Origin: Zhouia spongiae
GTDB lineage: Bacteria; Bacteroidota; Bacteroidia; Flavobacteriales; Flavobacteriaceae
DNA: 64,000 bases
NCBI RefSeq assembly: GCF_022760175.1
Contig: NZ_CP094326.1
Location: 3,708,804-3,772,803 of the forward strand
Direction: 5' to 3'
Of this stretch, positions 1 through 20,252 are shown piece by piece. The translations under genes were made by a program, and so were the position numbers. The notes under the pieces were generated by a model, which worked only from the letters and a program-made list of their open reading frames with translations, searched no databases and was not told where the DNA came from. Within the stretch, counting starts at the first letter, position 1, and each line of letters opens with the position of its first letter.

Positions 1-157
1 AAACACATCCATAAGCAACATCCGTATATACCTGAGTGGTGAAAATTTATTCGAAATCACAAACCTTTACAAATATCTCGACCCTGAAATATTAGGATCT
101 ACTTCAGCTTATCCGTTCCAGAAGACATATTCTATAGGTGCATCATTAAATTTTTAA
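1..157 (+). CDS. SusC/RagA-type TonB-dependent receptor, C-terminal end only
   Basis: An open frame enters from the left edge (first whole codon at base 2) and stops with TAA at 155-157. The 51 visible residues read as the last beta-strands of a SusC receptor: a 'IRIYLSGENLFEITNLYKY' stretch, then '...YSIGASLNF' ending in Phe, the usual last residue for beta-barrel assembly recognition. A SusD gene starts 10 bases later, as expected for a SusC-SusD pair. In this family SusC is the outer-membrane TonB-driven barrel and SusD its lipoprotein lid. The substrate cannot be read from this tail; the downstream phosphoesterase and phosphonate genes suggest a phosphorus-containing ligand (inference). 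Confidence 0.9.
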   Translation, partial: NTSISNIRIYLSGENLFEITNLYKYLDPEILGSTSAYPFQKTYSIGASLNF

Positions 158-167
158 AATTAAACCC

Positions 168-1949
168 ATGAAAAAGATAGTATTATATATATCCGCTGTA
201 ACTTTATTATTACAGGGGTGCGAGGATGACTTCCTGGATCGAATCCCGGAAACAGACATTACCGGAGAAAACTTTTTTAACAACCCAAAGGACCTCGAAA
301 CCTATACAAACGAGTTTTATGACTATTTGGGTGCCAGTACCAGTGATTATTCTACAGACAACATGGCCCAGTATTCTCAGGGAAGTGAACTCGAGGACAA
401 GCTAAGGGGTACCATTTCGCCGGAAACTGTTGGTGGTGGATGGAGTTGGGGCCAACTGAGAAACATTAACTACTTTTTGGTCAATTATCAGAAAGCGGAA
501 GGTGATCAAACTGAAATCAACCATTATGTAGGTATCGCAAAATATTTTAGAGCAAGGTTTTACATCGATAAAATTAAACGGTTCGGTAGTGCTCCATGGT
601 ATTCGAAACCTGTTGAAACAGGAGATGAAGATTTATTATATCAGGCTAATGATCCCAGAGAACTTGTTGTCGATTCTATCATGGCAGACCTTGAGTTTGC
701 TGTAAAACATGTAAAAGAAGACTCAGACAAAACACGGTTAAGCAAATGGGTTGCCCTCGCAGAATTATCAAGATTCAGTCTTTACGAAGGGACGTTCAGA
801 AAATATCATAATGAAATCAATATTGGTAATGCTGACCGTTTTTTAAAAAGGGCTGTCTCGGCTGCCGATGAAATCATAAATAGCGGAAGTTTTAGCCTGT
901 ACAGTACAGGTAATCCTACAGAAGATTACAGAAACCTGTTTGCCATGGAAAGCCAAAGCGGCAACCCTGAAGCGATTATGTATTTAGATTATGATTCCAG
1001 CGAACGTACCAACCAAAACGGAGTTGTTTTTGATTATTATTGGGGGTTAAGCAAATCGCTGGCAGATTCTTACCTGATGGATAACGGTACGTCTTTTACA
1101 ACCCTTACAGGTAATGATCAAAAAGCCATCATCGAAATATTTGAAAACAGGGATCCACGAATGGCTCAAACAATTATGGCACCGGGATATACCCGCCCCG
1201 GCTCACCTTCTCCTTTTGTCACCAGATTGTCATACGGCGGATATAACCAGGTAAAGTTTTGGCCGAAGGAAGAAAATAAATTAGGCTGGCAACGCTCTTA
1301 TAACGACCTCATGGTGTACCGTTTCGGTGAAGTATTGCTAAATTATGCCGAGGCAAAAGCAGAATTGGAAACAATTACCCAGGCAGATATCGACAAAAGC
1401 ATCAACAAACTCAGAGAGCGAGCAGGCATGCCTTCTTTAAATATGGCTGCTGCAAATACATCTATAGACCCGGTATTAGCAGATCAGTACCCGAACGTAG
1501 GGGGAGACAATCAGGGACTCATGCTGGAACTAAGAAGGGAAAGACGTGTAGAACTGGCTTGTGAAGGGTTCAGGGAACAAGACATGTACAGATGGAAAGC
1601 AGGTTCTACCTTGGCAAAACCACAATTTGGCATTTTCATTCCCGAACTTGGTGAACACGATGTAACAGGCGATGGTGTGCCGGACATAGCTGTATTAAAT
1701 TCACCTGAAGAGACATCGCCTATCGATGATGTTCCGGATGCAATAAAAAGTACGTTAGCCATATACTACTTAAATGAACAAGGAACCCCTACCGATCTGT
1801 ACCTAAGCGGTGGATCCCAGGGTTTTGTTGGTTTTAATCAAGATCATAATGTTCCGAAATCGTTTATAGAGCCTCAATATTATTATTATCCGATCCCGTT
1901 AAATGAATTGGTTTTAAACCCTAACCTGCAACAACCTCCAGGTTGGTAA
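168..1949 (+). CDS. RagB/SusD family nutrient-binding outer-membrane lipoprotein
   Basis: 593 aa. The N-terminus is a lipoprotein signal with lipobox LLLQGC (Cys18), followed by the 'DDFLDRIPETDITGENFF' start typical of SusD proteins. The middle has the TPR-like helical pattern, and the C-terminal part carries the 'LMVYRFGEVLLNYAEAKAE' and 'LRRERRVELACEGFR' motifs of the RagB/SusD family. The protein should sit on the cell surface and cap the SusC whose tail ends 10 bases upstream. A hairpin terminator follows at 1971-1997, so this pair probably forms its own transcript end, with some read-through possible into the metallophosphoesterase gene that starts 62 bases later. The ligand is unknown; the phosphonate-type context is only suggestive. 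Confidence 0.95.
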   Translation: MKKIVLYISAVTLLLQGCEDDFLDRIPETDITGENFFNNPKDLETYTNEFYDYLGASTSDYSTDNMAQYSQGSELEDKLRGTISPETVGGGWSWGQLRNINYFLVNYQKAEGDQTEINHYVGIAKYFRARFYIDKIKRFGSAPWYSKPVETGDEDLLYQANDPRELVVDSIMADLEFAVKHVKEDSDKTRLSKWVALAELSRFSLYEGTFRKYHNEINIGNADRFLKRAVSAADEIINSGSFSLYSTGNPTEDYRNLFAMESQSGNPEAIMYLDYDSSERTNQNGVVFDYYWGLSKSLADSYLMDNGTSFTTLTGNDQKAIIEIFENRDPRMAQTIMAPGYTRPGSPSPFVTRLSYGGYNQVKFWPKEENKLGWQRSYNDLMVYRFGEVLLNYAEAKAELETITQADIDKSINKLRERAGMPSLNMAAANTSIDPVLADQYPNVGGDNQGLMLELRRERRVELACEGFREQDMYRWKAGSTLAKPQFGIFIPELGEHDVTGDGVPDIAVLNSPEETSPIDDVPDAIKSTLAIYYLNEQGTPTDLYLSGGSQGFVGFNQDHNVPKSFIEPQYYYYPIPLNELVLNPNLQQPPGW

Positions 1950-1970
1950 AAATTACTTAAGTTTATCCTT

Positions 1971-1997
1971 GCAAAGCCCATTATGGGCTTTGCTTTA
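1971..1997 (+). terminator. Hairpin terminator after SusD
   Basis: GCAAAGCCCA-ttat-GGGCTTTGC forms a 9-bp stem with a short loop just after the SusD stop codon, followed by TTTATT. The T-run is imperfect, so termination may be partial. Confidence 0.7.
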
Positions 1998-2011
1998 TTA
2001 AAAAAAATACT

Positions 2012-4498: not shown

Positions 4499-4553
4499 CC
4501 CCGAATATTAACCCAAACTTAACGATATACTATCACATAATTAGCATTTAATA

Positions 4554-4584
4554 TTGTTATACGATTCATTTTTTTTAATATTTG
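4554..4584 (+). promoter_or_regulatory. Candidate Bacteroidota promoter for the FAD oxidase/PhnX-like operon
   Basis: A TTG at 4554-4556 lies about 20 bases before AATATTTG (4577-4584). This is one mismatch from the Bacteroidota -7 consensus TAnnTTTG at the usual -33 spacing. It is 48 bases upstream of the ATG at 4632, in a 133-bp gap after the metallophosphoesterase gene. Confidence 0.45.
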
Positions 4585-4631
4585 TAAAATAATTTTACAT
4601 CTGATAAATTTAACGCATTCATTTAGAACAA

Positions 4632-5786
4632 ATGCAAAAACAATATGACTTAATAGTAATAGGCGGCGGGGTCTTAGGTACATTTCACGCTTATCATGCC
4701 CTTTTAAAAGGCTTAAGAGTAGCTTTGATCGAAAAAGACATACAGCCGATGGGCGCAACGGTCAGAAACTTTGGTCAGGTAGTACCATCTGGTATGGATA
4801 GTAAATGGCAGGCATACGGAAGGCGCAGCCTTGAAATATATAAGAACATTCAATCTGAACATGATATTTCTGCGAGGCTGAACGGTACGGTATATATCGC
4901 TTCAAATGAAGAAGAACTTCAGCTCCTAGAAGAACTTTACAGTATCAACCAAAGAAACAGCTATGCTTCCTCACTGCTTACTAAAGAAGAATGCTTAAAA
5001 AAATACCCGGGCTTACAAAATGACTATGTAGTGGCAGGGTTATTCTTTCCGGAAGAAATTACCGTAGAATCAAGGGTCATGATTTCCCGACTGCAAAAAT
5101 ACCTGGTTGATAAATTTAGCCTGGAAATAATTTATAATCTTAACGTCTTGCATTGTGAACCGCTGAATGGTCGTGTAGAAGTGATGACCTCCCTTCATAA
5201 AACGCTGTGGGCCTCCAAGGTCATTATATGCAATGGCAATGATTTTAAAACCTTGTATCCCGAGGTTTTTAATGCCAGCGACCTTGAGGTATGCAAACTC
5301 CAGATGATGCAAACAAAGCCTCAGAAAAATTACCGTTTGCCCGGGTCTATCCTTACGGGATGGACTATCAGGAGGTATGAAAGTTTTTCTGAGTGTCCTT
5401 CTTATAAGGAGATCAAAGCCAGGGAACCTGAAACTTCATATCAGAAAAAATGGGGAGTGCACATCCTTTTTAAACAAGCTGCCGACGGTTCCGTAATTAT
5501 TGGTGATTCTCATGAATATGCAGACGCTGAAAATGCCGATTCATTAGGTTTCGACCTGAACATGGAACTGGACAATTTTATGATCGAGGAAGCAAAAAAG
5601 ATTATAGCATTACCTGATTATGAAATCGCACAACGATGGTATGGAACTTATTCACAATGCAAGCATAACGATATCTTTACCCACAATGTAAACGACAATA
5701 TTCATATCGTAACAGGAATAGGCGGTAAAGGAATGACCGGAAGTGCCGGATTTGCCGAAGATAATATTGAATCAATATATAATTAA
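4632..5786 (+). CDS. FAD-dependent oxidoreductase, TIGR03364 type (phosphonate-associated amine oxidase)
   Basis: 384 aa, soluble, no signal peptide. The N-terminal dinucleotide-binding fold is clear: GGGVLG at about residues 12-17 and an acidic strand end 'LIEKD' near 35, as in DAO/glycine-oxidase-like flavoproteins (PF01266). The 'GATVRNFGQVVPSGM' segment and the C-terminal 'VTGIGGKGMTGSAGFAED' FAD contact are typical of TIGR03364. That family is known for repeated association with PhnX-like hydrolases and was proposed to deaminate aminophosphonates related to 2-aminoethylphosphonate; relatives in phosphonate clusters are reported to oxidise N-methylated forms. The gene ends 5 bases before the PhnX-like gene, so the two are almost surely co-transcribed and act in sequence in the cytoplasm. 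The exact substrate is not deducible here. Confidence 0.87.
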   Translation: MQKQYDLIVIGGGVLGTFHAYHALLKGLRVALIEKDIQPMGATVRNFGQVVPSGMDSKWQAYGRRSLEIYKNIQSEHDISARLNGTVYIASNEEELQLLEELYSINQRNSYASSLLTKEECLKKYPGLQNDYVVAGLFFPEEITVESRVMISRLQKYLVDKFSLEIIYNLNVLHCEPLNGRVEVMTSLHKTLWASKVIICNGNDFKTLYPEVFNASDLEVCKLQMMQTKPQKNYRLPGSILTGWTIRRYESFSECPSYKEIKAREPETSYQKKWGVHILFKQAADGSVIIGDSHEYADAENADSLGFDLNMELDNFMIEEAKKIIALPDYEIAQRWYGTYSQCKHNDIFTHNVNDNIHIVTGIGGKGMTGSAGFAEDNIESIYN

Positions 5787-5791
5787 TTAAA

Positions 5792-6469
5792 ATGAAGGAT
5801 CAAAAAATTGAGCTTGTTGTTTTTGATATGGCAGGAACAACAGTAGATGAAGACAATGTAGTATACAAAACATTAAGAAATGCTATTAATAAAGCGGGGT
5901 ACGATTACTCTTTAAACTTTGTTCTGGAACACGGGGCAGGAAAAGAAAAAAAGCAAGCTATAATAGACATTCTGGCACAGGATGACATAAATGACATTCC
6001 CCTGGCTGAGGCTATTTTTTCTGATTTTAAAGTAATGTTGAAAAAAGCTTACGATGAGCTGGCCGTTACCACCTATAAAGATACCGAACAGCTTTTCTGC
6101 AATCTAAAGGATAAAGGTATCAAGGTAGCACTAAATACCGGCTACGATGCTAAAACAGCCAACCTGCTTATCGACAAACTGGGCTGGAAAGTTGGAGAGC
6201 ATATAGACATGCTGGTTACCGCTTCCGATGTTGAACATGGCCGTCCGGGACCTGATATGATCAACCTCGTTATGGAAAATCTTGGTATCAAGGACTCATC
6301 CTCTGTAATAAAAGTGGGGGATTCTATAATTGATATTGAGGAAGGTAAAAATGCAAATTGCGGATATTCAATAGGTGTTACTACCGGGGCGCATACAAGA
6401 GAACAACTTCAGACGGCAAATCCGGATTATATTTTCGACTCTTTAAAAGAACTGGAGTCGATCCTTTAA
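5792..6469 (+). CDS. PhnX-like phosphonatase-type HAD hydrolase (TIGR03351 type)
   Basis: 225 aa cytosolic HAD protein. Motif I is FDMAGT (Asp12, Ala14), the DxAGT variant that separates phosphonatases from ordinary DxD HAD enzymes. The cap segment 'HGAGKEKKQ' (about residues 48-56) contains lysines that could provide the Schiff-base residue of phosphonatase chemistry. Motif III region 'EHGRPGPD' has the phosphonatase-like Arg, and 'KVGDSIIDIEEGKNA' supplies the metal-binding acids. TIGR03351 members are documented next to FAD oxidases and zinc dehydrogenases rather than PhnW, exactly the context here. Expected reaction: C-P cleavage of phosphonoacetaldehyde or its 1-hydroxy analogue to phosphate plus an aldehyde. 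Which of these is used is unproven. Confidence 0.88.
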   Translation: MKDQKIELVVFDMAGTTVDEDNVVYKTLRNAINKAGYDYSLNFVLEHGAGKEKKQAIIDILAQDDINDIPLAEAIFSDFKVMLKKAYDELAVTTYKDTEQLFCNLKDKGIKVALNTGYDAKTANLLIDKLGWKVGEHIDMLVTASDVEHGRPGPDMINLVMENLGIKDSSSVIKVGDSIIDIEEGKNANCGYSIGVTTGAHTREQLQTANPDYIFDSLKELESIL

Positions 6470-6513
6470 TACAACAAAACTTTCATTTGTTTTTTTTAAT
6501 TTGGTTTTTACTT

Positions 6514-6547
6514 AAAAAGGGCTTTAAATACTTTAAGGCCCTTTTTT
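6514..6547. terminator. Bidirectional hairpin terminator between convergent genes
   Basis: AAAAAGGGCTTTAA-atac-TTTAAGGCCCTTTTTT forms a long stem with one mismatch, A-rich on the left and T-rich on the right. It ends the phosphonate operon on the plus strand and the converging regulator gene on the minus strand. Confidence 0.85.
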
Positions 6548-7112
6548 ATATATAAAAGTACATGACCAGCATTTTAGCTTTGCCCTTACTTTCATTTACC
6601 GGTACATGCGGTATCCGTCCATCAAAAAATATGGCATCGCCCTCATTAACCGTTACTTCATCGTCTCCTATAATATATTTACAGCTTCCACTTAACATGT
6701 ATTTAAACTCAAAAGCTTCCGTAATGACTTTACCCCGTTTAGAACCAGGGGATACTTCCAATAATACGGCCTCAAAGCCCATCGACGACAATTGTTTACT
6801 GAAAATATATTTATAGAGAAACCCTTCAGCATCGTCTTCCTTTTCGATAACCGAAAAGTCCGATGATCTTGTTAGTATATAAGAAGCTCCGTTAGAATTA
6901 GGCATTCCGAGAAAAAAGTCGGTCACTTCAACCTCCAATGCCTTTATGATATTAAATAATACCGGTAGCGAAGGAATCGTTCTGCCGTTTTCGATTCTCG
7001 ATATAAGACCATTACTTACATCTGCTCTCGAAGCTATATCACTTATAGTCTTTTTATTATCTTTTCGTATCTCCTTAATACGTTTTCCAATTCCTATTAT
7101 ATAATCTTTCAT
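6546..7112 (-). CDS. XRE-family HTH transcriptional regulator with C-terminal cupin
   Basis: 188 aa. Residues about 8-65 form an XRE/HTH_3 domain ('KRIKEIRKDNKKTISDIA', 'VSNGLISRIENGRTIPSL'). Residues about 110-187 form a small beta-barrel cupin ending in 'GDAIFFDGRIPHVPVN', the ligand-sensing half. Proteins of this layout typically control uptake or catabolism genes for small polar compounds. It resembles the second regulator at 10829-11416 in length, domain order and the 'FFDGR.PHVP' signature, so the two are probably paralogues within one island. It is the last gene of the minus-strand group, 146 bases after the SGNH esterase gene. A role in regulating the phosphonate genes is inference from position. 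Confidence 0.9.
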   Translation of the reverse strand: MKDYIIGIGKRIKEIRKDNKKTISDIASRADVSNGLISRIENGRTIPSLPVLFNIIKALEVEVTDFFLGMPNSNGASYILTRSSDFSVIEKEDDAEGFLYKYIFSKQLSSMGFEAVLLEVSPGSKRGKVITEAFEFKYMLSGSCKYIIGDDEVTVNEGDAIFFDGRIPHVPVNESKGKAKMLVMYFYI

Positions 7113-7258
7113 CCCCTTATTTTGGAGACAATATATTCAAAAAAAGGAAAAGTATTTTAACAATTATGATCTTTTACAATAAAAACTTTACTCACCAAGT
7201 AAGACTTACAATTCGCAGATACTTAATCCGGGTAGTATATGTATAAACTTATCGGGGA

Positions 7259-8377
7259 TCAATTCTTTATTATTTCAGACAAAATATGGTTATAGGCTTC
7301 TGCATACTGTATCATTCCATAATCATTCGGATGCGTACCATCAACAAAAGAATCAATACCCAAACCTATATCTTCTTTGGTTAACAGGTATAAATTCTGA
7401 TCTCCCTCCTCCTTCAAACGTTGGTATGCTTTTTTTACCGCTACATTTAATCGGGTAAACATTCTTTTCCGGTTATATTGAATATCTCCATCCGAATATC
7501 CTCCATGTTCAACGAATAAAATGGGGGTTTTACTATGTTTTTGCCTCAGGATTCCAACTGCTTCTACCAATCTTTCCTCGGCCTGCACAGGACCTAAATC
7601 ATCTTTAGTAAAGTTTGGCATACAATCTAAAACAAAAACAGAGGCATCAAAGTTTCTCATGTACTCCAGTAATGGTTTTTCCAGCAGACCATTACCTGAA
7701 AACCCTAAATTAACCACCGTTTTATTTAACTTGCGCGACACGATACTGGTCCAGGCCATTCCGGGCCGTGAAGCACATGCGCCTTGCGCTATCGAAGTTC
7801 CATATACCACAACCGGGTTCTTTTCCCGTCGGGTTTCTCTCAGTTCTTTTATCGTATTAGCGTGAGGAACTCCAATTTTCAGCCATTCGATTTTAGTATA
7901 CAAGGGGAGGTACAAGCAGAATTCCCTTTGTTTCCGAATTTTGTCCAGATCTGAATAAGTAAAAGATATTGTGTCCTGAAAGTTATAATGCCCACGTACC
8001 CATTTAAATTTACCATCATCAACAGCATAAAGATCTACCCCGCTGACACCGGTAGCCGGCATATGGTTCATACTCTTAGCTCCCTTTACCTTATAATTAA
8101 CAAGAATCTGTTGCGCATCAGTCTCAAATTTAAGGTATAAACCGGCTGCATGTTGGGATAGTCTCCAAACCGGTTCTCTTACCTCCGTTTCCATAGAAGC
8201 CGGCAACCGGTTAAAATCTTCTCTTTCTTTATCGACCAATCTTCCGTAGACATTCATTTTTTTTGCATCCAGCCAACGGTATGCTTTTGCCTCCTGAGCA
8301 TTGATGATAAATGAGCTTAGAAAGACGGCAAATGCAATCCCCCTTAAACAGCTATGCTTATGCTTAATGATGTTCAT
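7259..8377 (-). CDS. Secreted SGNH/GDSL esterase with N-terminal GxDLY domain
   Basis: 372 aa with a signal peptide ('GIAFAVFLSSFIINAQ'). The N-terminal half is a jelly-roll-like domain containing 'GVDLYA', the GxDLY signature of PF14607. The C-terminal half is an SGNH hydrolase of the PF14606 type: block I 'VVYGTSIAQGA' (nucleophile Ser in GTS), 'GFSGNG' with the oxyanion Gly/Asn, and block V 'DGTHPNDYG' with the catalytic Asp and His. Such enzymes remove acyl or acetyl groups in the periplasm. The gene begins 5 bases after the stop of the phosphodiesterase gene, so they are translated from one operon. A role in deacylating a phospho- or phosphonolipid or decorated glycan would fit (inference); the true substrate is unknown. 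Confidence 0.88.
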   Translation of the reverse strand: MNIIKHKHSCLRGIAFAVFLSSFIINAQEAKAYRWLDAKKMNVYGRLVDKEREDFNRLPASMETEVREPVWRLSQHAAGLYLKFETDAQQILVNYKVKGAKSMNHMPATGVSGVDLYAVDDGKFKWVRGHYNFQDTISFTYSDLDKIRKQREFCLYLPLYTKIEWLKIGVPHANTIKELRETRREKNPVVVYGTSIAQGACASRPGMAWTSIVSRKLNKTVVNLGFSGNGLLEKPLLEYMRNFDASVFVLDCMPNFTKDDLGPVQAEERLVEAVGILRQKHSKTPILFVEHGGYSDGDIQYNRKRMFTRLNVAVKKAYQRLKEEGDQNLYLLTKEDIGLGIDSFVDGTHPNDYGMIQYAEAYNHILSEIIKN

Positions 8378-8382
8378 CCCGG

Positions 8383-9321
8383 TTAATCCTTAAATATGAC
8401 TCCGGGAATTTGTCCGACCCACGATTCCGGAAGTTCCTTACATTGAAATAATTCGGCTATGACCCTGGCAGTATTTGTATTGTTATTAGGGGCATCAAAT
8501 CCATCAGAGTTATGAATACGGGGCCCTACAATGGCCCACGGCACATTCATTTCTACTTCGCTGACACCTCCGTGCCCATGACCTTTACCACCATGATCGG
8601 TAATCAGTAAAAAGTGTGTATCTTCAAAGATATTCTTTTCTTTCAAGGCATTTATAAGCTTCCCTATAGCGGTATCTGCTTCTTCGATTGATCTTATATA
8701 CTCCGGAGACATCCATTTATATTTATGGCCGGCATGATCAGTATGCACTGAATACAAAAAGATGAAGGTAGGATCTTCTTTGTGTTCATCAGCAAAGCGC
8801 AACGCTTTATCATAATTTTCTATATAAGCATCATCCTCAAGAAAATTCACCTCATCTAAATAACGCCGGTTAATAGGATTAATCAAATTGCCCCAATTAT
8901 AATAATAAGCAGTTTTTACTCCGGGAACCTGGTCTTTTAATATCTTAAATATAGAGGGATAGTATCCGTCTGCATCTGTTTCTATAGCCGGCAAATTATT
9001 TTTATCTATAGTCCATCCGTTGCTATCCACTCCATGTTGTTCCGGCCCTCCGGAGGTTAAATGACTTGTCCAGTTTGGCAAGGTAACCGAAGGCATAACG
9101 GTTCTGGTAGCGAATGAAACCATCCCTTTTCCGAAAAGCGCGTCCAGATTCGGATGACTGGCGGTCTTATATCCATCCACGCTGATTCCATCAAGACCTA
9201 TGACGATAACCCTTTTTGCTACAGGTTTATTATCCGATTGCTTGTTAGCCGGTTTGGAAGTACTACAACTGAAGATACCGCTCAATAATATTACCAAAAA
9301 AAGATTTTTAATTTTTACCAT
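8383..9321 (-). CDS. ENPP/phosphonoacetate-hydrolase-like alkaline phosphatase superfamily lipoprotein
   Basis: 312 aa from the ATG at 9321; a longer frame upstream begins only at a TTG and is unlikely. The start gives a clean lipoprotein signal ending 'LLSGIFSC'. Alkaline-phosphatase-superfamily metal sites are all visible: 'VIGLDGIS' (Asp), 'PSVTLPNWTS' with the nucleophilic Thr typical of nucleotide pyrophosphatase/phosphodiesterases and phosphonoacetate hydrolase, 'HTDHAGH' and 'TDHGGKGHGHGG'. It should hydrolyse a phosphodiester or C-P compound in the periplasm. Short length (no extra domains) is close to bacterial NPP or PhnA-like forms. It lies between the carrier gene upstream and the SGNH esterase downstream (5-base gap). 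Phosphodiesterase is the safer call; direct C-P hydrolysis is possible. Confidence 0.87.
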   Translation of the reverse strand: MVKIKNLFLVILLSGIFSCSTSKPANKQSDNKPVAKRVIVIGLDGISVDGYKTASHPNLDALFGKGMVSFATRTVMPSVTLPNWTSHLTSGGPEQHGVDSNGWTIDKNNLPAIETDADGYYPSIFKILKDQVPGVKTAYYYNWGNLINPINRRYLDEVNFLEDDAYIENYDKALRFADEHKEDPTFIFLYSVHTDHAGHKYKWMSPEYIRSIEEADTAIGKLINALKEKNIFEDTHFLLITDHGGKGHGHGGVSEVEMNVPWAIVGPRIHNSDGFDAPNNNTNTARVIAELFQCKELPESWVGQIPGVIFKD

Positions 9322-9401
9322 TGATAAAATATTTTTTACAAATAATAAAAACAAATTAACCAAAAAGTAATGAAATACACAAAAGAGAATTCATGATTTC
9401 A

Positions 9402-10691
9402 TTATAATGCTTCACTGATTATTTTTTTTTCACTTTTAGAGAAGTTAAAATACAACATCGTTACTGATACCAAAATCAGCATTCCTATAGCTGTTTTAAT
9501 ATTTAAACCGATAAAGAATTCGACCCAGGTATTATCGTATTTAAATACTTCTTTTAACAACAACACCGACACGCTTCCCATATAACCAAAAGCATCTGCT
9601 GTATAAAACATAAATCCAATATTGCCTTTATACCTTAAAAAAGCCATTAAGCGTTCAAAAACAAGACAATGAAAAAGTATATAGGGTAAATAGATTCCTA
9701 TTCCTGTACTGATCATCCAGGCGACAGGCGACATCAACTTCTTTTCGAACATAACTGTTGCTAACAGAACTAATACCGATCCGAGTATCGTAAGCCACAT
9801 ACCCATATTAAAAGCCAGTTTGTTTTTCCTGATCATTATCCCCATAGCTGTCAGCACCAATACGATTACAGCTACCGGAATTTCGGTAAGGGTAATTAAC
9901 TCCGGTTTTTGGGAATAGCCTAATTCTGCCCAGAACTCAACAACAAAATTATCTCGAAAATCCCTTACTATGGTCAACAGCACATAAATAATAACCAGGC
10001 CTGCAAATCCCAAACCGTGTTTTCTTATAAATTCTTTTCTTTTAGCCCGATCCATCGGAACACGTTCTGTCCGTTCCTGAACATCGAGAGCATCCGGACT
10101 CTTTGAGTGTTTAAGCATCCATACAGCCAGTAAGAAAAAAGGGAAAAACAACAATCCGGTAACGAAAGGCATTATGTATTCTCCAAGTCCGAAGTCTTGC
10201 ATCAACACAACCCCCACGGTCTTCACCAGTCCGGTTGAAAAAATAAACGTTGCACTTAAAGCAGCAGCCAGCAACTCTGTATTTCTTCGTCCTTCTATAT
10301 ATGAGAGTACAACCCCGAATACCATCCCCAAAGGCAAACCATTAAGAAAAATTGCCAGTACCTTGAGCGGTGGCGGAACTATTGCAAACAATCCTAACAT
10401 TGCAAGACCAAAAGCAACCAGCCCCACAAGCCACTTAACCCGTTTTTCGGGCGACATTTCTGAAATGATCTTGATCCCTGCAAATTTAGATAGCATATAC
10501 CCTAAAACCTGGCTTATCACTAAAACCGTTTTCGCATCCACTTCAAAGCTTAACCCCAGATCTAAATACTGTCCTGCCAAAAAGGATTTTCTAACCGCAT
10601 ACATGCCCGTATAGCATAAAAAAGCCGCTATCATTATCCACCCTGAACTAAACCATGCAGAGGCTGTCATTTTATTTTTAAGATTCATCAT
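9402..10691 (-). CDS. DUF5690/MFS-type inner-membrane carrier with organophosphate-antiporter-like motif
   Basis: About 429 aa with roughly twelve hydrophobic segments. I start it at the tandem ATG codons (10691/10688): the longer frame begins at a TTG inside the apparent promoter at 10714-10742. The first membrane segment reads 'CYTGMYAVRKSFLAG', closely matching the Y-x-x-R-K-x-F motif of the GlpT/UhpT/UhpC family, in which the Arg contacts phosphate. A second Arg-rich segment opens the C-terminal half ('TIVRDFRDNF'), where GlpT has its other phosphate-binding Arg. DUF5690 itself has no assigned substrate. Its place with phosphodiesterase, esterase and phosphonate genes makes uptake of a phosphorylated or phosphonate compound a reasonable inference. 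Confidence 0.82.
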   Translation of the reverse strand: MMNLKNKMTASAWFSSGWIMIAAFLCYTGMYAVRKSFLAGQYLDLGLSFEVDAKTVLVISQVLGYMLSKFAGIKIISEMSPEKRVKWLVGLVAFGLAMLGLFAIVPPPLKVLAIFLNGLPLGMVFGVVLSYIEGRRNTELLAAALSATFIFSTGLVKTVGVVLMQDFGLGEYIMPFVTGLLFFPFFLLAVWMLKHSKSPDALDVQERTERVPMDRAKRKEFIRKHGLGFAGLVIIYVLLTIVRDFRDNFVVEFWAELGYSQKPELITLTEIPVAVIVLVLTAMGIMIRKNKLAFNMGMWLTILGSVLVLLATVMFEKKLMSPVAWMISTGIGIYLPYILFHCLVFERLMAFLRYKGNIGFMFYTADAFGYMGSVSVLLLKEVFKYDNTWVEFFIGLNIKTAIGMLILVSVTMLYFNFSKSEKKIISEAL

Positions 10692-10713
10692 CGCTAACAA
10701 TTTTCTGTTAAAG

Positions 10714-10742
10714 CAAATGTAATTTTCTATCCTTGACAACAA
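10714..10742 (-). promoter_or_regulatory. Promoter for the carrier-phosphodiesterase-esterase operon
   Basis: Read on the minus strand, TTG (10742-10740) is followed after 18 bases by TACATTTG (10721-10714), a perfect TAnnTTTG -7 element at correct spacing. It lies 23 bases upstream of the ATG at 10691 and supports that start over the upstream TTG. Confidence 0.6.
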
Positions 10743-10770
10743 ATTAAGGAAACGTAAAGTAACGGTTAAA

Positions 10771-10815
10771 TTTTCTTTTTAATAAATTAATTTTCTTATT
10801 AAGAAACTATATTTG
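10771..10815 (+). promoter_or_regulatory. Tandem operator-like repeat and -7 element upstream of the second XRE regulator
   Basis: Two adjacent 20-bp direct repeats (10771-10790 and 10791-10810, 16 of 20 positions equal, core TTTTCTTnTTAA) overlap an inverted pair TTAATAA...TTATTAA (10779-10785, 10796-10802). They run directly into TATATTTG (10808-10815), a perfect TAnnTTTG -7 element 13 bases before the ATG at 10829. The site lies between the divergent promoters and could be bound by one of the cupin regulators; that is inference. Confidence 0.5.
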
Positions 10816-10828
10816 CATTGAAAACGAA

Positions 10829-11416
10829 ATGGTCATGTCGGAAAACAAACATATAACTATTTGGATAGGAAAGAAAATCAGGGAGTTACGAATTTCCAAA
10901 AACTGGAAATTAGGTGATCTTTCCAATCATTCGGATGTCAGTATCCCTATGTTATCAAAAATTGAGAACGGTCGGGTCTTCCCCACTTTCCCTACTCTAC
11001 TGCAAATACTCAGAACCCTGGAGGTTGATTTAAATGATTTTTTTGAAGATGTAGGTGAAAACAAAAAATTTCCGGGTCACCTATTCATAAAGAAGGAAGA
11101 CTATACGGAAACAGCAAAAGAAGCTTCGATTGGCTTTAAGTATGAAACGGTTCTCAATCATTCCATTAATGATATTTCACTCGAAATCTCGGTTCTGACC
11201 TTATCCCGGAATGCAACCAGGGAAATGGTTGTTACTGAAGGTTTTGAATATATTTACGTTGTAAAAGGCGACATTACTTACAGGCTCGGAGATAAGACCT
11301 TTAACATGCAAGAGGGTGATTCTCTGTACTTTGATGGCAGACAACCTCATGTACCCCTTAACAAGCTGAATACAGAATCTATATTATTAGTAGTCTACTT
11401 TATTACTTCAATTTAA
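10829..11416 (+). CDS. XRE-family HTH transcriptional regulator with cupin domain (second copy)
   Basis: 195 aa. The HTH domain covers about residues 10-70 ('KIRELRISKNWKLGDLSN', 'VSIPMLSKIENGRVFPTF'); the cupin covers about 115-193 and ends with 'GDSLYFDGRQPHVPLN'. It shares domain order and the 'FDGR.PHVP' motif with the regulator at 6546-7112. It is the first gene of a plus-strand operon: the zinc dehydrogenase starts 6 bases after its stop. Its promoter (10808-10815) faces the promoter of the carrier operon, so it may control both directions and itself. Translation could start at the ATG at 10829 or at the Met two codons later; nothing decides between them. Confidence 0.9.
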   Translation: MVMSENKHITIWIGKKIRELRISKNWKLGDLSNHSDVSIPMLSKIENGRVFPTFPTLLQILRTLEVDLNDFFEDVGENKKFPGHLFIKKEDYTETAKEASIGFKYETVLNHSINDISLEISVLTLSRNATREMVVTEGFEYIYVVKGDITYRLGDKTFNMQEGDSLYFDGRQPHVPLNKLNTESILLVVYFITSI

Positions 11417-11422
11417 AATCTT

Positions 11423-12508
11423 ATGTGCAACACAAAAGCCAGGGCCAAAATATTTAAACAACCCCATGAATCATTTGGTCATTTAGAAATAGAAATACCA
11501 GAACCTGACAATGAAGAAATCATTGTACAAATAACCTATACCACAATATGTACCAGTGATTTACACACATATTACGGAAGGAGGAAATCTCCAAGTCCGG
11601 GAATTTTAGGACATGAGATTATTGGAAAAATTGTAAAACTGGGGCAACATATCCATTCAGATTATAATGGTGAAAAAATAACCACAGGGGATCTGATTAC
11701 GTGGTCCGTTTATGCATTCGATCCGGACAATTTACAAGCCAAAAGGGGGATTCCCCAAAAATCTCCCGGTTTATTTAAATACGGGCATCAGACAATCCTG
11801 AACGATTCTCCATTAAGCGGTGGATTTGCCACCCATTGTGTTCTAAAAAAAGGAAGTTCCGTTTTTAAACTTTCAACCGAACTTTTACCATCTGAAGCGG
11901 CTCCTCTTAATTGTACACATGCAACCGTGGCGGGTGCTTTAAGACTGGCAGGGGATATCGACAATAAAAATGTAATGGTCTTTGGAGCAGGAATGCTGGG
12001 ACTGTCAGCTTGTGCCATGAGTAAAGAAAGAGGTGCCAAAAATGTATATGCCGCGGATATTAACCCTGAAAGGTTATCCACAGCTAAAAAATTTGGTACA
12101 TCGGAAACATTTATAGCTTCATTAAGTAAAACTGAAATTATAGAAAACCTCAATGGTGAAGATATAGACATTGTAATAGATACAACAGGGAACCCGGAAG
12201 CCATGGCATTAGGAATTAATTTATTAACTTTAGGGGGAGTTGCCGTATGGGTCGGAGCCGTTTATAATGCTCCTAAAACACAAATCGACGCCGAAACCAT
12301 AGTAAGGAATATTTTGTCTGTTAAAGGATTGCATAACTATACACCACAAGATCTGGCCACAGCTATAGAATTTATGAATTCATGTCATAAAAAGTATCCT
12401 TTCAAGGAACTTGTAGGTAAAGAATATTCGCTTTGTGAGCTGGATACAGCTTTTAAGACGGCTAATACGGGAATTCACCATAGAGTTGGTATTAATCAAA
12501 ACCTTTAA
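11423..12508 (+). CDS. Zinc-binding alcohol dehydrogenase, phosphonate-associated TIGR03366 type
   Basis: 361 aa medium-chain dehydrogenase. Catalytic-zinc residues appear as 'TICTSDLH' (Cys near 43) and 'GHEIIG' (His near 64). The Rossmann motif is 'VFGAGMLGLSACAMSKERGA', ending in an Asp (AADINPER) that favours NAD. The usual four-Cys structural-zinc lobe is absent; in its place is 'RGIPQKSPGLFKYGH', matching the '.PQK...L.KYGH' signature of the TIGR03366 family. That family is known for repeated neighbourhood with phosphonate catabolism genes. Here it would oxidise or reduce the aldehyde released by C-P cleavage (for example acetaldehyde or glycolaldehyde); that assignment is inference. 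It lies 6 bases after the XRE-cupin gene and 3 bases before the lipoprotein gene. Confidence 0.85.
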   Translation: MCNTKARAKIFKQPHESFGHLEIEIPEPDNEEIIVQITYTTICTSDLHTYYGRRKSPSPGILGHEIIGKIVKLGQHIHSDYNGEKITTGDLITWSVYAFDPDNLQAKRGIPQKSPGLFKYGHQTILNDSPLSGGFATHCVLKKGSSVFKLSTELLPSEAAPLNCTHATVAGALRLAGDIDNKNVMVFGAGMLGLSACAMSKERGAKNVYAADINPERLSTAKKFGTSETFIASLSKTEIIENLNGEDIDIVIDTTGNPEAMALGINLLTLGGVAVWVGAVYNAPKTQIDAETIVRNILSVKGLHNYTPQDLATAIEFMNSCHKKYPFKELVGKEYSLCELDTAFKTANTGIHHRVGINQNL

Positions 12509-12511
12509 ATT

Positions 12512-13120
12512 ATGAAAATATTAAAAATCTTATTAATAGTGTTTATTGTTGTTTCTTGTAAAACCAATGAAAGCAAGAAAGAAATAATGAATAAGGATAC
12601 GGACACACTAAATGTAGAGTCAGAACCTGCTGTTAAAAATGAAAATGAGAACTTTATTGAAAATGGGGTAGATGATAAACTTTCTGCAAGGATATCAAAC
12701 TTTATAAAAGACAGTATTGTAAAAAAAGACATTGAATTTTTAAATGAAACCGATCGTAGTTATCAGTTTTATACTGTTGACTTAAACAGTGATGGAAAGG
12801 ACGAGGTGTTTGTAAAACTAAACGGTTCATACTTCTGTGGCTCAGGAGGATGTACAATACTTTTACTAAACGCTGAACTTCATCCTATTACTACTTTTAC
12901 TGTTATGAGACCACCCCTTTTTATAGAAAATACGAAAAAGAACAATTGGGCGATATTACTTATAAAAAGCGAAGGCGAGTTTAAAGAACTTACCTATAAC
13001 AACGGTACATATCCGTCTAACCCGTCAATACTTCCTAAAGCACCATATGATGCTCCCAGTGGTCATGCCCAAATTGCATTTGACGATAATTACGGAAAAT
13101 CAAAAACATATACTTTTTAA
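12512..13120 (+). CDS. Small lipoprotein of unknown function
   Basis: 202 aa. A lipoprotein signal ends 'IVFIVVSC' (Cys16), followed by a polar Lys/Glu/Asn-rich linker to about residue 60. The globular part holds 'YTVDLNSDGKDEVFV', an EF-hand/FG-GAP-like calcium loop pattern (DxNxDGxDE), and 'CGSGGC', a likely disulfide-bonded turn. I do not recognise a family. It is translationally close to the dehydrogenase gene (3-base gap) and ends the operon. Its TAA is also the first three bases of the 8-bp target duplication of the adjacent IS element, so the reading frame is intact but its own terminator now lies on the far side of the insertion (14472-14500). Confidence 0.85.
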   Translation: MKILKILLIVFIVVSCKTNESKKEIMNKDTDTLNVESEPAVKNENENFIENGVDDKLSARISNFIKDSIVKKDIEFLNETDRSYQFYTVDLNSDGKDEVFVKLNGSYFCGSGGCTILLLNAELHPITTFTVMRPPLFIENTKKNNWAILLIKSEGEFKELTYNNGTYPSNPSILPKAPYDAPSGHAQIAFDDNYGKSKTYTF

Positions 13121-13125
13121 AAAAG
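13118..13125. repeat. Left target-site duplication of the IS256-type element
   Basis: TAAAAAAG, matched by the same 8 bases at 14462-14469 on the other side of the element. The first three bases are the stop codon of the lipoprotein gene. Confidence 0.85.
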
Positions 13126-14461
13126 GACACTATCCCGAAAAGTGTGTAAGTTAAAAATCGAGGGTTTGACTTTTTTAAAGTCAAACCCTTTTTTCAAATA
13201 TAGTTAAAAACTGGTTTAAAATAATGCCCCAGTTCCTAATAGGCATTGACCATTTTTTAGTAGCCTCTCTAAGAGCTAAAAAAGTGGATTTCATTACAGC
13301 TTCATCTGTTGGAAATGAGAGCTTATTTTTAGTGTACTTTCTGATTTTTCCATTAAGGTTTTCGATAAGGTTCGTGGTGTAAATGATTTTTCTAATTTCT
13401 AAAGGAAATTCATAAAAAGCGGTAAGCTCCTCCCAGTTGTCTTCCCAGCTTTTAATGGCGTAAGAGTACTTGTGTTCCCATTTCTGAGCAAAGTCCTCCA
13501 GAGCGGCTTTTGCTGCGCTTTTGGTTGGTGCATCATAAATGTTTTTCATATCCTTTGTAAACGCCTTCTTGTCTTTCCAAACCACATAGCGGCAAGCGTT
13601 ACGAATTTGGTGTATCACGCAGATTTGGGTTTTAGATTCAGGAAAAACGTTTTTAATAGTATCTGTAAAACCGTTAAGATTATCTGTAGCTGTGATAAGT
13701 AAATCCTGAACACCTCTGGCTTTAATGTCGGTCAGTACACTCATCCAAAAGGCTGCCGATTCATTCTTACCCAGCCAAAGTCCCAAAACTTCCTTTTTAC
13801 CATCTCTGCGCAGTCCTACGGCAATGTACATGGTTTTATTAATGACTTTGGAGTTCTCCCGAACTTTGAATACAATACCGTCCATCCAAGTAATTAAATA
13901 TACAGGCTCTAGTGGTCTGTTTTGCCAGGCAACAATATCATTGGTTACCTTATCTGTGATCCGGGATATGGTAGATGTAGAAACATCAAAATCGTAGACT
14001 TCTCGGATTTGTTCTTCGATATCAGAATTACTCATGCCTTTTGCATAAAGGCTGATAATGACGTTTTCTATGCCATCGACCATGTTAGTACGCTTTGGAA
14101 CAAGCATAGGATTAAAGGAGGCTTCTCGGTCTCTGGGAACTTTAATGTTAGTCTCTCCCAGAGCTGTTTTTATCTTTTTTGAACCATAACCATTACGAGT
14201 ATTACTGTCATCGGATTGCTGATGTTTATCATAATCCAGATGCGCATCAAGTTCGCCTTCAAGCATCTTTTCAATACCTCGCTTTTGGATGGATTTTAAA
14301 AAGGAGGTCAATTCGTCTCCTGTCTTGAACTGTTTTAAAAAATCGTCGTTTAGAAAATCTTCTTTCTTCATAAGTGTGTAAATTTTAAAATTAAACAAAA
14401 AAATATCGAGAGCATTAACCCTCGATATTTTTATACTTTACACACTTGGTGAGATACTACC
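13126..14461 (-). mobile_element. Intact IS256-family insertion sequence (1336 bp)
   Basis: Imperfect 24-bp terminal inverted repeats start GACACTATCCCG at 13126 and, read inward from 14461, GGTAGTATCTCA. Both share the inner block AAGTGTGTAA, with a further shared ATCGAGGG inside. The element carries a single transposase gene and is flanked by an 8-bp duplication (TAAAAAAG), within the 8-9 bp known for the IS256 family. Near-perfect duplication and an uninterrupted transposase indicate a recent, probably active copy. A degraded relative remains at 54143-54370. Confidence 0.92.
13181..14371 (-). CDS. IS256-family transposase
   Basis: 396 aa from the ATG at 14371; the frame extends nine codons to a TTG but the ATG precedes the usual '[15 protein letters not shown]' start. 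Features of the mutator/IS256 family are visible: '[21 protein letters not shown]' region near 60-85, a first catalytic Asp in '[11 protein letters not shown]', the second in 'ATDNLNGF', a 'CVIHQIRN' C/H-x-x-R motif, and the catalytic Glu in '[14 protein letters not shown]'. It catalyses cut- or copy-type transposition at the inverted repeats at 13126 and 14461. Full length and unbroken, so probably functional. Confidence 0.97.
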
Positions 14462-14469
14462 TAAAAAAG
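14462..14469. repeat. Right target-site duplication of the IS256-type element
   Basis: TAAAAAAG, identical to 13118-13125. Removing the element and one copy restores the lipoprotein stop codon followed directly by its hairpin terminator. Confidence 0.85.
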
Positions 14470-14471
14470 AT

Positions 14472-14500
14472 AGCCGGTATTTGTTACCGGCTTTTCTTTT
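14472..14500. terminator. Terminator displaced from the lipoprotein gene; also ends the minus-strand phosphoesterase
   Basis: AGCCGGTA-tttgt-TACCGGCT is an 8-bp perfect stem followed by TTTTCTTTT on the plus strand. On the minus strand it is followed by ATCTTTTTT, so it can work for the phosphoesterase gene 14512-15492 too. Confidence 0.8.
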
Positions 14501-14511
14501 GAAAAATCTGT

Positions 14512-15492
14512 TTAATGTTTAATTAAACGCTTCCTGATTTCCGGAACTATCTCTTGTCCGGGCCTTGCATTTTCATACCCTTCAAACCCGAGCTTTACAG
14601 GACTGTCTCCTACCCATTCTGTGTCTTTCCCTCTAAAACTAATGGTTTGTTTCCCAGGATCGATTGTCATTGTAGTAAATAAAGCATCACGATAGGGACA
14701 TGTGTAAGCTATGTATTTGTACTGATCAAGAACCTCATCGCTATAGCTTTTATGCTGGAACTTTCCTCCCACCCAATAATAAGATGCTGAGTTTATGTGC
14801 ACATAGTTCACTCCTTTTATCAGAAGATGAGCATCTATATGAGTATGACCGTTAATAGCGACTAAAATCTTATCTGAATACTTCCCCAGCAAATTTTGTA
14901 TCTCTTCAGCATTGTCTACCGAATAAGTGCCTGCCAATGGCTGATGCGATGCAATGACAATGGGACCTTCAAGTGTTTTTAACTGTTCTTCCAACCACGA
15001 TGCCTGTTCTTCATTGATATATGAAGCGTAACCTCCTTTATGAGACGGTGACCCCTTATCATTTCCATCCAGAACTATAAAATATACCCCCGAGATTTCT
15101 GACACATAATAACGGGCGGGCATCCCCCAATAATCTACACATTGTTCCCGCGTATAACCCGAATCCATATCATGGTTCCCTATAATATGCATGCGTTCCT
15201 TATGTGCATCGTTAAACATCCCGATCACCTCTTTATTTTTATCACCTGGATATGCAAAATCTCCCATTTGCATTATGGCATCCGGTTTTTCGCTTCTCAT
15301 TGAGCGAAGAAAGGACTCCATCCTTTCTTTTCCATCATGCATAATATCCTGATGTAAATCGGTTATAATTCCTATTTTAACCTTATTTCTGCGGTTATCA
15401 AATAAGCTTAAAGCACTTGTGGGCAACGATAATACAACACCTGTCGCTACGGCTCCTTTTATAAAACTTCTCCTGTTATTTTCCCGGTACAT
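14512..15492 (-). CDS. Tat-exported metallophosphoesterase
   Basis: 326 aa. The N-terminus 'NRRSFIKGAVATGVV' is a twin-arginine signal, unlike the Sec signals of most neighbours, so it is probably exported folded with its metals. The calcineurin-like motifs are complete: 'TDLHQD' (D-x-H) near residue 45, 'MGDFAYPG' near 78, 'GNHDMDSG' near 105, 'ASHQPL' near 185 and 'NGHTHID' near 220. Expected role: periplasmic phosphomono- or diesterase releasing phosphate or an alcohol from a larger ligand. Together with the fused phosphoesterase at 2012 and the ENPP-like enzyme at 8383 it makes three exported phosphohydrolases in the island. The substrate is unknown. Confidence 0.9.
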   Translation of the reverse strand: MYRENNRRSFIKGAVATGVVLSLPTSALSLFDNRRNKVKIGIITDLHQDIMHDGKERMESFLRSMRSEKPDAIMQMGDFAYPGDKNKEVIGMFNDAHKERMHIIGNHDMDSGYTREQCVDYWGMPARYYVSEISGVYFIVLDGNDKGSPSHKGGYASYINEEQASWLEEQLKTLEGPIVIASHQPLAGTYSVDNAEEIQNLLGKYSDKILVAINGHTHIDAHLLIKGVNYVHINSASYYWVGGKFQHKSYSDEVLDQYKYIAYTCPYRDALFTTMTIDPGKQTISFRGKDTEWVGDSPVKLGFEGYENARPGQEIVPEIRKRLIKH

Positions 15493-20239: not shown

Positions 20240-20252
20240 GATATGATATTTA

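What the first reader, a model, noticed from the sequence alone, without database searches (positions are those of the whole stretch)
1..15492. SusC/SusD-linked phosphonate utilisation island without PhnW
Within 15 kb are genes of three family types known to co-occur in aminophosphonate catabolism (FAD oxidase TIGR03364, PhnX-like TIGR03351, zinc dehydrogenase TIGR03366). They lie beside a SusC/SusD pair, three exported phosphohydrolases, an SGNH esterase, a phosphate-carrier-like transporter and two cupin regulators. No PhnW and no PhnCDE ABC transporter is seen. A TonB-dependent, polysaccharide-locus-like way of capturing and processing a phosphonolipid, phosphonoglycan or phospho-oligomer would be a new kind of phosphonate uptake. 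The family facts are established; the coupling to SusC/SusD and the large ligand are my inference.
Basis: partly seen in the sequence, partly recalled or inferred. Interest (0 to 1): 0.8.

Follow-up and report, generated by a model that had tools for sequence, protein, structure and literature searches.

The report
TonB-coupled aminophosphonate utilisation locus
The window holds part of a conserved flavobacterial gene cluster that appears to take phosphonate-bearing molecules through the outer membrane, free the aminophosphonate, import it and break its carbon-phosphorus bond, a little-described way for these bacteria to obtain phosphorus, nitrogen or carbon.

Summary
Observation partly confirmed. 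The FAD oxidase (TIGR03364, PbfD type) and the PhnX-like hydrolase (TIGR03351) pass curated cut-offs; the TIGR03366 dehydrogenase just misses (320 vs 328 bits). Most of SusC, and another TonB receptor, lie left of the window; an IS256 transposase separates the last phosphoesterase. The genome has no match over cut-off to PhnW (TIGR02326), PF12974 or PhnJ.

The coupling is real. PbfD occurs in 21 of 299 family genomes; all 21 loci hold DUF5690 transporter, PbfD and PhnX-like, and 19 a SusC or TonB receptor. Among 80 named relatives, 69 have a receptor within 10 kb, against 1 of 16 control stretches (about 26% expected from plug-domain density). Fourteen of 21 also carry PbfA (hydroxy-AEP lyase), 13 of them beside SusCD and a phosphodiesterase. 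One relative has SusCD and phosphodiesterase beside PbfA, PhnA, PhnY and PhnW. A palindrome (TTTAC-W5-GTAAA) precedes receptor and transporter genes in 49 of 80 loci.

Best reading: a TonB-dependent, PUL-like aminophosphonate locus with DUF5690 as permease. An ester ligand (phosphonoglycan or phosphonolipid) is plausible, not shown. Precedent: one clause in PMC8115612.

The parts
1..157 (+). 3' end of SusC (gene is G000:C1:3705796-3708960; mostly outside the window)
   Evidence: PF07715, PF13715, PF00593
168..1949 (+). SusD-like lipoprotein
   Evidence: PF07980 159.5 bits, PF14322
2012..4498 (+). metallophosphoesterase with MetallophosN and PQQ-type beta-propeller
   Evidence: PF00149, PF16371, PF13360; among the 21 loci shared with G021 and G256
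4574..4608 (.). two one-mismatch copies of the palindrome TTTAC-N5-GTAAA, 20 bp apart, before PbfD
4632..5786 (+). PbfD-type FAD-dependent oxidase (TIGR03364)
5792..6469 (+). PhnX-like HAD hydrolase (TIGR03351); Lys51 aligns with Lys53 of PhnX
6546..7112 (-). XRE-cupin regulator 1
   Evidence: PF01381, PF07883; family present in 20 of 21 loci
7259..8377 (-). GxDLY/SGNH esterase; among the 21 loci seen only here and in G021 (same genus)
8383..9363 (-). type I phosphodiesterase (PF01663), lipobox-like N-terminus; likely start near 9321
9314..9349 (.). two one-mismatch palindrome copies, 21 bp apart, at the phosphodiesterase start (one overlaps the likely start codon, so weak)
9402..10742 (-). 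DUF5690 transporter of MFS fold, candidate aminophosphonate importer
10829..11416 (+). XRE-cupin regulator 2
11423..12508 (+). zinc-type alcohol dehydrogenase near TIGR03366 (320.3 bits, cut-off 328.1)
   Evidence: in 4 of 21 loci
12512..13120 (+). 202-aa predicted lipoprotein, no family; also in G021 next to the dehydrogenase

Best explanation
This is the window's copy of a conserved flavobacterial locus for aminophosphonates. Outer-membrane TonB receptors (here one SusC/SusD pair and one receptor without SusD) take up a molecule bearing 2-aminoethylphosphonate (AEP). Exported phosphodiesterases, and here an esterase, free the aminophosphonate. The DUF5690 permease carries it into the cell. 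PbfD oxidises AEP or N-methyl-AEP to phosphonoacetaldehyde without PhnW, and the PhnX-like hydrolase splits the C-P bond to acetaldehyde and phosphate; the dehydrogenase may handle an aldehyde. An XRE-cupin regulator probably controls the genes through a shared palindrome. Shown by sequence: family membership, conserved linkage, conserved palindrome, conserved catalytic residues. Inferred: uptake, the ester ligand, the permease substrate, the regulator-palindrome pairing, and every enzyme activity in this organism.
For: TIGR03364 and TIGR03351 over cut-off; PbfD enzymes are reported to oxidise AEP and M1AEP to phosphonoacetaldehyde (PMC10590968). Core DUF5690, PbfD, PhnX-like in 21 of 21 and 80 of 80 loci; DUF5690 in 25 of 299 family genomes, including all 21 with PbfD. 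Outer-membrane receptor in 69 of 80 loci vs 1 of 16 control stretches, and in 19 of 21 by gene order. PbfA (NF049939, 691.7 bits, cut-off 525) in 14 of 21 loci; in the 28 of 80 named loci that show it, SusC_A and a strong phosphodiesterase are always in the same stretch. G129: SusCD, phosphodiesterase, PbfA, PhnA, PhnY, PhnW and a GlpT/PgtP-like MFS in one stretch. Palindrome: 75 strict sites in 49 of 80 loci, 72 of them upstream of locus genes, 0 in 320 kb of control. PhnX-like model's best solved matches are PhnX; D12 and K51 invariant in 21 of 21. DUF5690 model is nearest G6PT, with GlpT listed at rank 49; AepP, an experimentally shown AEP permease, is GlpT-related (PMC8316502).
Against: No growth, expression or enzyme data. 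The window's own genome lacks PbfA over cut-off (best 227.7 vs 525), so the strongest substrate link comes from relatives whose SusC is only about 21-39% identical to the window's in aligned pieces. 11 of 80 loci show no receptor (L138 and L139 are short stretches). The phosphodiesterase family is not exclusive: of 36 genomes with it, 12 have neither PbfD, PbfA nor DUF5690, and in G006 and in one stretch of G018 it stands beside another SusC/SusD with no phosphonate gene. G217 has PbfA with only a SusD remnant and no phosphodiesterase of this family in the locus; G050 has SusCD without PbfA. PhnX-like misses the PhnX equivalog cut-off (114.2 vs 220). Bare AEP is small and need not use TonB transport. 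26 of 80 loci have neither a strict palindrome nor a phased pair.
Confidence: 0.78

Rival explanations
1. The locus imports free aminophosphonate only. Receptors and phosphodiesterases are general organic-phosphorus scavengers (Pus type) that sit beside it because all are phosphate-starvation genes.
For: A PhoA-GDPD gene with the domain pair of PhoA1 in PUSII (PF00245+PF13653) is in 6 of 21 fetched stretches (PMC8115612); LpxH-like, glycosyltransferase and GH1 genes are in 8 of 21. The phosphodiesterase family occurs in 12 genomes without PbfD, PbfA or DUF5690, and in G006 and G018 beside another SusC/SusD without phosphonate genes in the stretch.
Against: A receptor stands directly before the permease on the same strand in 24 of 80 loci, and one ORF further in 4; the 28 PbfA loci of the 80 all carry SusC_A and a strong phosphodiesterase; the palindrome marks receptor and permease promoters alike.
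Confidence: 0.3
2. An ordinary polysaccharide or phospholipid locus in which PbfD and the HAD enzyme act on a non-phosphonate amine or phosphate ester.
For: SGNH/GxDLY esterase, PA14 and lectin-like modules. TIGR03364 and TIGR03351 are hypothetical equivalogs in NCBIfam.
Against: PbfA in the locus of 14 of 21 genomes; PhnW, PhnY and PhnA beside a SusC_A/SusD_A pair in G129; PMC10590968 reports that the tested Pbf enzymes did not react with non-phosphonate analogues such as sarcosine, taurine or beta-alanine.
Confidence: 0.07
3. Chance neighbourhood: SusC/SusD genes are common in these genomes.
For: 61 plug-domain matches in 4.04 Mb, so about 26% of 20-kb stretches should hold one (my arithmetic).
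Against: 69 of 80 observed, repeated gene orders, shared palindrome. The loci are related, so counts are not independent, but the receptor label changes 15 times by parsimony on a quick PbfD tree.
Confidence: 0.02

Closest known systems
PbfD2-PhnX pathway (PMC10590968)
   Same: FAD oxidase of TIGR03364 with a PhnX-type hydrolase and no PhnW; phosphonoacetaldehyde as intermediate (inferred here)
   Different: Here tied to TonB receptors, phosphodiesterases, a DUF5690 permease and XRE-cupin regulators; the hydrolase falls in TIGR03351, not over the TIGR01422 cut-off
Phosphate utilisation systems PusCD of Flavobacterium (PMC8115612)
   Same: SusC/SusD with phosphodiesterases instead of carbohydrate enzymes; [quoted passage not shown]
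   Different: Those are defined by induction under phosphate depletion, not tested here; the sections and passages I read describe no PbfD, PbfA or DUF5690 locus
AepP 2AEP permease (PMC8316502)
   Same: major facilitator fold, resemblance to organophosphate:phosphate antiporters
   Different: AepP is 27.75% identical to GlpT by that paper; the DUF5690 profile has no sequence match in the PDB set at E<=1
Polysaccharide utilisation locus
   Same: SusC/SusD, exported hydrolases, a local regulator
   Different: No glycoside hydrolase or lyase among the recurring members of the block; phosphoesterases instead (a GH1 gene lies in the stretch in 8 of 21)

Membership tests
PbfD / TIGR03364 | score over curated cut-off 285.1 | tested here: met
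   426.8 bits
PbfD / TIGR03364 | oxidation of AEP or N-methyl-AEP to phosphonoacetaldehyde | not testable with these tools
   needs an enzyme assay
PbfD2 subgroup | position in the PbfD tree outside PbfD1 | not tested
PhnX (TIGR01422) | score over equivalog cut-off 220 | tested here: not met
   114.2 bits
PhnX-like (TIGR03351) | score over cut-off 218.9 | tested here: met
   237.3 bits
PhnX-like (TIGR03351) | Asp12 nucleophile and Lys53 of PhnX conserved (roles recalled) | tested here: met
   D12 and K51 invariant in 21 of 21; K51 aligned with K53. The residue facing Met49 varies; read without a gap, the one facing His56 is Lys in the window
TIGR03366 dehydrogenase | score over cut-off 328.1 | tested here: not met
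   320.3 bits
Polysaccharide utilisation locus | tandem SusC-SusD | tested here: met
   L007:5797-8961 and window 168-1949
Polysaccharide utilisation locus | linked carbohydrate-active enzymes | tested here: inconclusive
   no glycoside hydrolase or lyase among the families found for 2012-15492; the GxDLY/SGNH esterase could act on a carbohydrate; no CAZyme library was searched
PusCD phosphate utilisation system | SusCD linked to phosphomono- or diesterases | tested here: met
PusCD phosphate utilisation system | induction by phosphate depletion | not testable with these tools
   needs expression data
Organophosphate:phosphate antiporter (OPA) MFS | fold closest to GlpT/G6PT | tested here: inconclusive
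   best solved matches are G6PT, TM about 0.68, but other MFS families score close and GlpT is at rank 49

The most novel reading that the evidence does not exclude
A dedicated TonB-dependent system for esterified aminophosphonates (phosphonoglycans or glyco-phosphonolipids): capture by SusCD or a TonB receptor, release of AEP or hydroxy-AEP by phosphodiesterases that in relatives bear PA14 or lectin-like modules, import by DUF5690 as a new aminophosphonate permease family, and control by an XRE-cupin regulator through a shared operator.
Probability: 0.42. Interest if true: 0.85.

Novelty: new variant of a known kind. Interest (0 to 1): 0.7.

Why it matters
How Bacteroidota take up phosphonates, and who consumes phosphonate esters of polymers and lipids, is little described; the AEP transporters in the passages I read are inner-membrane ones. 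A conserved cluster names a receptor, candidate releasing enzymes, a permease and an operator, so each step becomes testable. It also offers a function for DUF5690 and suggests what some of the many unassigned SusCD systems carry.

Tried and rejected
Considered and dropped: chance proximity of SusCD (base rate; controls). The pattern TTTAC-N5-GTAAA with any core is not specific genome-wide (16 exact places vs 10 for the reversed control); I rely on the A/T-core form, whose strict version misses 31 of 80 loci. A sequence search of the PDB with the DUF5690 profile gave nothing at E<=1. My crude N-terminal hydrophobicity test was useless (PbfD passes it too) and is not used; export of the phosphoesterases was not formally predicted. 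The flanking phospholipase C-type gene was considered as a partner but is not shared with the other 20 loci. PbfF (pfam02826, PMC12366243) is not the dehydrogenase here. The one-mismatch palindrome pairs before PbfD and at the phosphodiesterase start are weaker than the SusC one.

Limits: the 80 named loci are the best 80 of 495 relatives, chosen by similarity to the query alignment, 33 of them Flavobacterium, so counts are not independent. 'SusC_A' is a broad label: in several Flavobacterium loci it is only about 30-36% identical to my queries. The control is 16 stretches at round coordinates that I chose in 16 of the 20 other genomes; the receptor profiles were built from the loci themselves, so other receptor types could be missed there, and two control stretches had sub-threshold hits of 69 and 29 bits. 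The dyad count used 191 upstream stretches of the 80 loci and a single block shuffle. That searches examined the same 299 genomes is taken from their shared handles. Changed on re-checking: the phosphodiesterase family also occurs in 12 genomes without phosphonate genes, so the odds of the novel reading were lowered from 0.45 to 0.42.
Full report
What is there. The oxidase at 4632-5786 matches TIGR03364 at 426.8 bits (cut-off 285.1) and the hydrolase at 5792-6469 matches TIGR03351 at 237.3 bits (cut-off 218.9). The dehydrogenase at 11423-12508 scores 320.3 with TIGR03366, just below its cut-off of 328.1. SusC lies almost wholly left of the window (G000:C1:3705796-3708960) and is preceded by a second TonB receptor without SusD (3702723-3705572). 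An IS256 transposase at 13181-14398 stands between the conserved block and the metallophosphoesterase at 14512-15492; those two are not in the block of G021 or G256. Genome-wide there is no PhnW over cut-off (TIGR02326, best 39.2 vs 400.8 bits), no PF12974 match, no PhnJ and no PbfA over cut-off (best 227.7 vs 525). The relative labelled 'same genus' (G021) has a contig of 600,677 bases, as has Zhouia amylolytica in the named set, so the window is probably a Zhouia; this is an inference.

Conservation. Of 299 genomes of the family, 21 carry TIGR03364 over cut-off. I fetched the 20 other loci and extended them. All 21 hold the DUF5690 transporter, PbfD and the PhnX-like gene; 20 hold an XRE-cupin regulator. 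In 11 of 21 the order is DUF5690 > PbfD > PhnX-like, reversed regulator, SusC > SusD, then phosphodiesterase, metallo-beta-lactamase-fold protein, PbfA, purple-acid-phosphatase-like and alkaline-phosphatase-superfamily genes, with some of these last missing in G172 and G050. In three more (G144, G248, G180) the SusCD half comes first. Overall SusC_A and SusD_A are in 14 of 21, the phosphodiesterase in 16 (window type included), PbfA in 14, PAP-like in 14, AP-superfamily in 13, MBL in 10. PbfA, SusCD and phosphodiesterase are together in 13; G217 has PbfA but only a 128-aa SusD remnant and no phosphodiesterase of this family, and G050 has SusCD without either. By gene order 19 of 21 have a SusC or TonB receptor in the stretch fetched; G217 (remnant) and G203 do not.

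Named relatives. A scan of genome contigs found 495 relatives, of which the best 80 were kept: 20 genus labels, 33 loci from Flavobacterium. DUF5690 and PhnX-like are in 80 of 80, the regulator in 78. DUF5690 is the immediate upstream neighbour of PbfD on the same strand in 74, PhnX-like the immediate downstream one in 80. A receptor (at least 100 bits and 400 aa) is in the stretch in 69 of 80, against 1 of 16 control stretches; two further controls had weaker hits of 69 and 29 bits. Because those profiles were made from the loci, a fairer base rate is the 61 plug-domain matches of the own genome, which predict about 26% of 20-kb stretches (my arithmetic). SusC_A is in 36 loci and the TonB receptor without SusD in 32, with 2 holding both. 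SusC_A is a broad label: in several Flavobacterium loci it is only about 30-36% identical to the queries. A receptor lies directly before the permease in 24 loci and one ORF further in 4, nearly all of the type without SusD (27 of 28). On a quick PbfD tree of 81 rows the receptor label, with 'none' as one state, changes 15 times (least possible 5, shuffled mean 34.7); between the two main types alone it changes 6 times. So the receptor seems to have been exchanged while the catabolic core stayed.

Substrate. The key link is PbfA. [quoted passage not shown] In the 80 named loci, 28 show PbfA, and all 28 also show SusC_A and a strong phosphodiesterase; PbfA and the TIGR03366-like dehydrogenase are never in the same stretch (28 vs 11). 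In the 299 genomes PbfA is over cut-off in 20, 14 of them with PbfD. The six without PbfD are instructive. G129 has two PbfA genes, each next to a phosphodiesterase and near a SusC_A/SusD_A pair; one stretch reads SusC, SusD, two other ORFs (one with masked bases), phosphodiesterase, PbfA, PhnA (474.1 bits, cut-off 407.6), PhnY (642.3, cut-off 635.7), PhnW (TIGR03301, 406.8, cut-off 360.8), a GlpT/PgtP-like MFS protein, a FAD-oxidoreductase-like protein. G212 and G018 have SusCD, phosphodiesterase and PbfA; G121 has PbfA behind a different SusCD next to a PhoA-GDPD gene; in G240 and G162 PbfA stands without SusCD by my profiles. G057 keeps the locus but has a different PF01266 oxidase in the PbfD place. 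So SusCD and phosphodiesterase often follow aminophosphonate genes even when the catabolic route differs.

Results against an exclusive link. At E<=1e-50 the phosphodiesterase family is in 36 of 299 genomes: 18 with PbfD, 6 more with PbfA or DUF5690, and 12 with none of these. In two of the 18 (G050, G203) it lies elsewhere than the locus. In G006, and in one stretch of G018, it stands beside another SusC/SusD lineage without phosphonate genes. The 14 matches over 800 bits all lie in genomes with PbfD or PbfA. The enzyme family is therefore probably broader than phosphonates.

Permease. DUF5690 occurs in 25 of 299 genomes, including all 21 with PbfD; the other four are G212, G057, G129 and G162, each with a phosphodiesterase of this family within a few genes. 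The AlphaFold model (mean pLDDT 87.2) is closest to G6PT (SLC37A4) among solved structures, with GlpT at rank 49 and other MFS proteins between. No paper in the library mentions DUF5690 or PF18943. AepP, an AEP permease shown by mutants, is an MFS protein related to GlpT (PMC8316502, passages). DUF5690 is thus a strong but unproven candidate. If it exchanged AEP for phosphate it would serve N or C rather than P supply (inference).

Hydrolase. The PhnX-like model (mean pLDDT 92.8) has B. cereus PhnX as its four best solved matches. D12 and K51 are invariant in 21 of 21, and K51 aligns with K53; that this lysine forms the Schiff base is recalled, and fits the K53R and borohydride-reduced entries listed. 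The residue facing Met49 varies, and the one facing His56 (ungapped) is Lys in the window.

Ligand size. The phosphodiesterase of G108 carries PA14 and chitobiase-C-like modules by Pfam, and the alignment shows the same C-terminal region in the 12 long sequences. In L083, a locus with the receptor lacking SusD, the phosphodiesterase behind PhnX-like carries a ConA-like lectin domain and DUF4983. A phosphodiesterase-like ORF follows PhnX-like directly in 20 of 80 loci; its domains were checked only in L083. The window's copy lacks these modules. This favours a glycan- or glycolipid-borne phosphonate ester, but bare AEP is not excluded.

Regulation. Counting dyads in 191 upstream stretches, without prior expectation, gave TTTAC-N5-GTAAA in 50 of 80 loci, against at most 11 for any dyad in one block shuffle. 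The strict form with an A/T core has 75 sites in 49 of 80 loci and none in 320 kb of control; four permuted palindromes gave 0, 3, 0 and 1 sites. 72 of the 75 lie upstream of locus genes: DUF5690 29, receptor without SusD 27, regulator 10, SusC_A 3, dehydrogenase 2 (both over 300 bp away), SusC_B 1. Of the 27, 12 lie 58-63 bp and 10 lie 287-291 bp before the ORF start (first-start-codon ORFs, so starts may be misplaced). Neighbouring copies with up to one mismatch are 41-43 bp apart in 40 cases, none in control. 26 of 80 loci have neither a strict site nor a phased pair, among them most Allomuricauda/Flagellimonas loci and some Flavobacterium. In the window's genome a perfect copy and a one-mismatch partner 40 bp on stand before SusC; one-mismatch pairs stand before PbfD and at the phosphodiesterase start, and a single one before the TonB receptor. 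That the XRE-cupin protein binds it is inferred; the two loci without the regulator lack the site, too few to test.

What is known. PbfD acting without PhnW is known (PMC10590968; abstract, sections 8 and 18 and passages read). PbfA with phnX outside Proteobacteria is noted in PMC12366243 (passages). [quoted passage not shown] Other papers were seen as passages only (PMC8316502; PMC8154272; PMC10574752; PMC9381506). Library searches for a TonB- or SusCD-linked aminophosphonate locus showed in their listings no paper devoted to one; one search matched 257 papers and one search matched 113, of which 20 each were listed. The library lacks most subscription journals and all bioRxiv preprints, so an earlier description elsewhere is possible. 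I therefore call this a new variant of a known kind.

Noticed in passing
window 13181-14398: IS256-family transposase (413.6 bits) between the conserved block and the last metallophosphoesterase.
   Followed up: partly
window 15829-25378: A run on the minus strand with ResA/TlpA-like thioredoxins, an aspartyl-protease/PDZ protein, PKD_2 and DUF4843 proteins and a SusD-like protein, followed by a 1113-aa ORF (25484-28825); no link to phosphonates seen.
   Followed up: no
G000:C1:3698056-3699927 (L008:6057-7928, -): Phospholipase C-type phosphoesterase (PF04185, PF05506) a few kb left of the TonB receptor; not shared with the other 20 loci.
   Followed up: partly
L049:7441-10727 and equivalents: LpxH-like metallophosphoesterase, MJ1255-type glycosyltransferase and GH1-like gene lie together near the locus in 8 of 21 genomes; reminiscent (recalled) of PlcP-type lipid remodelling. 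The GH1 label is mine from sequence, not from a family search.
   Followed up: partly
L049:10976-12784: PhoA-GDPD fusion (PF00245+PF13653), the domain pair reported for PhoA1 in PUSII, in the stretches of 6 of 21 genomes; in G121 it lies beside SusCD and PbfA.
   Followed up: partly
L174:10530-11777: A different PF01266 oxidase (49 bits to TIGR03364) occupies the PbfD place in G057: apparent non-orthologous replacement.
   Followed up: partly
L032:12789-13175: 128-aa SusD C-terminal remnant between the regulator and PbfA in G217: the SusCD pair seems to be decaying there.
   Followed up: no
G000:C1:1414753 and 2139340: Two other copies or near-copies of the palindrome: before an NPCBM-domain protein, and before another SusC/SusD pair that follows a PhoD-like phosphatase and a sodium symporter.
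   Followed up: partly
G006:C3 (L211) and G018:C5 (L213): The phosphodiesterase family beside a SusC_C/SusD_C pair, in L213 also near PhoA-GDPD, with no phosphonate gene seen by my profiles: perhaps a sister phosphodiester system.
   Followed up: no
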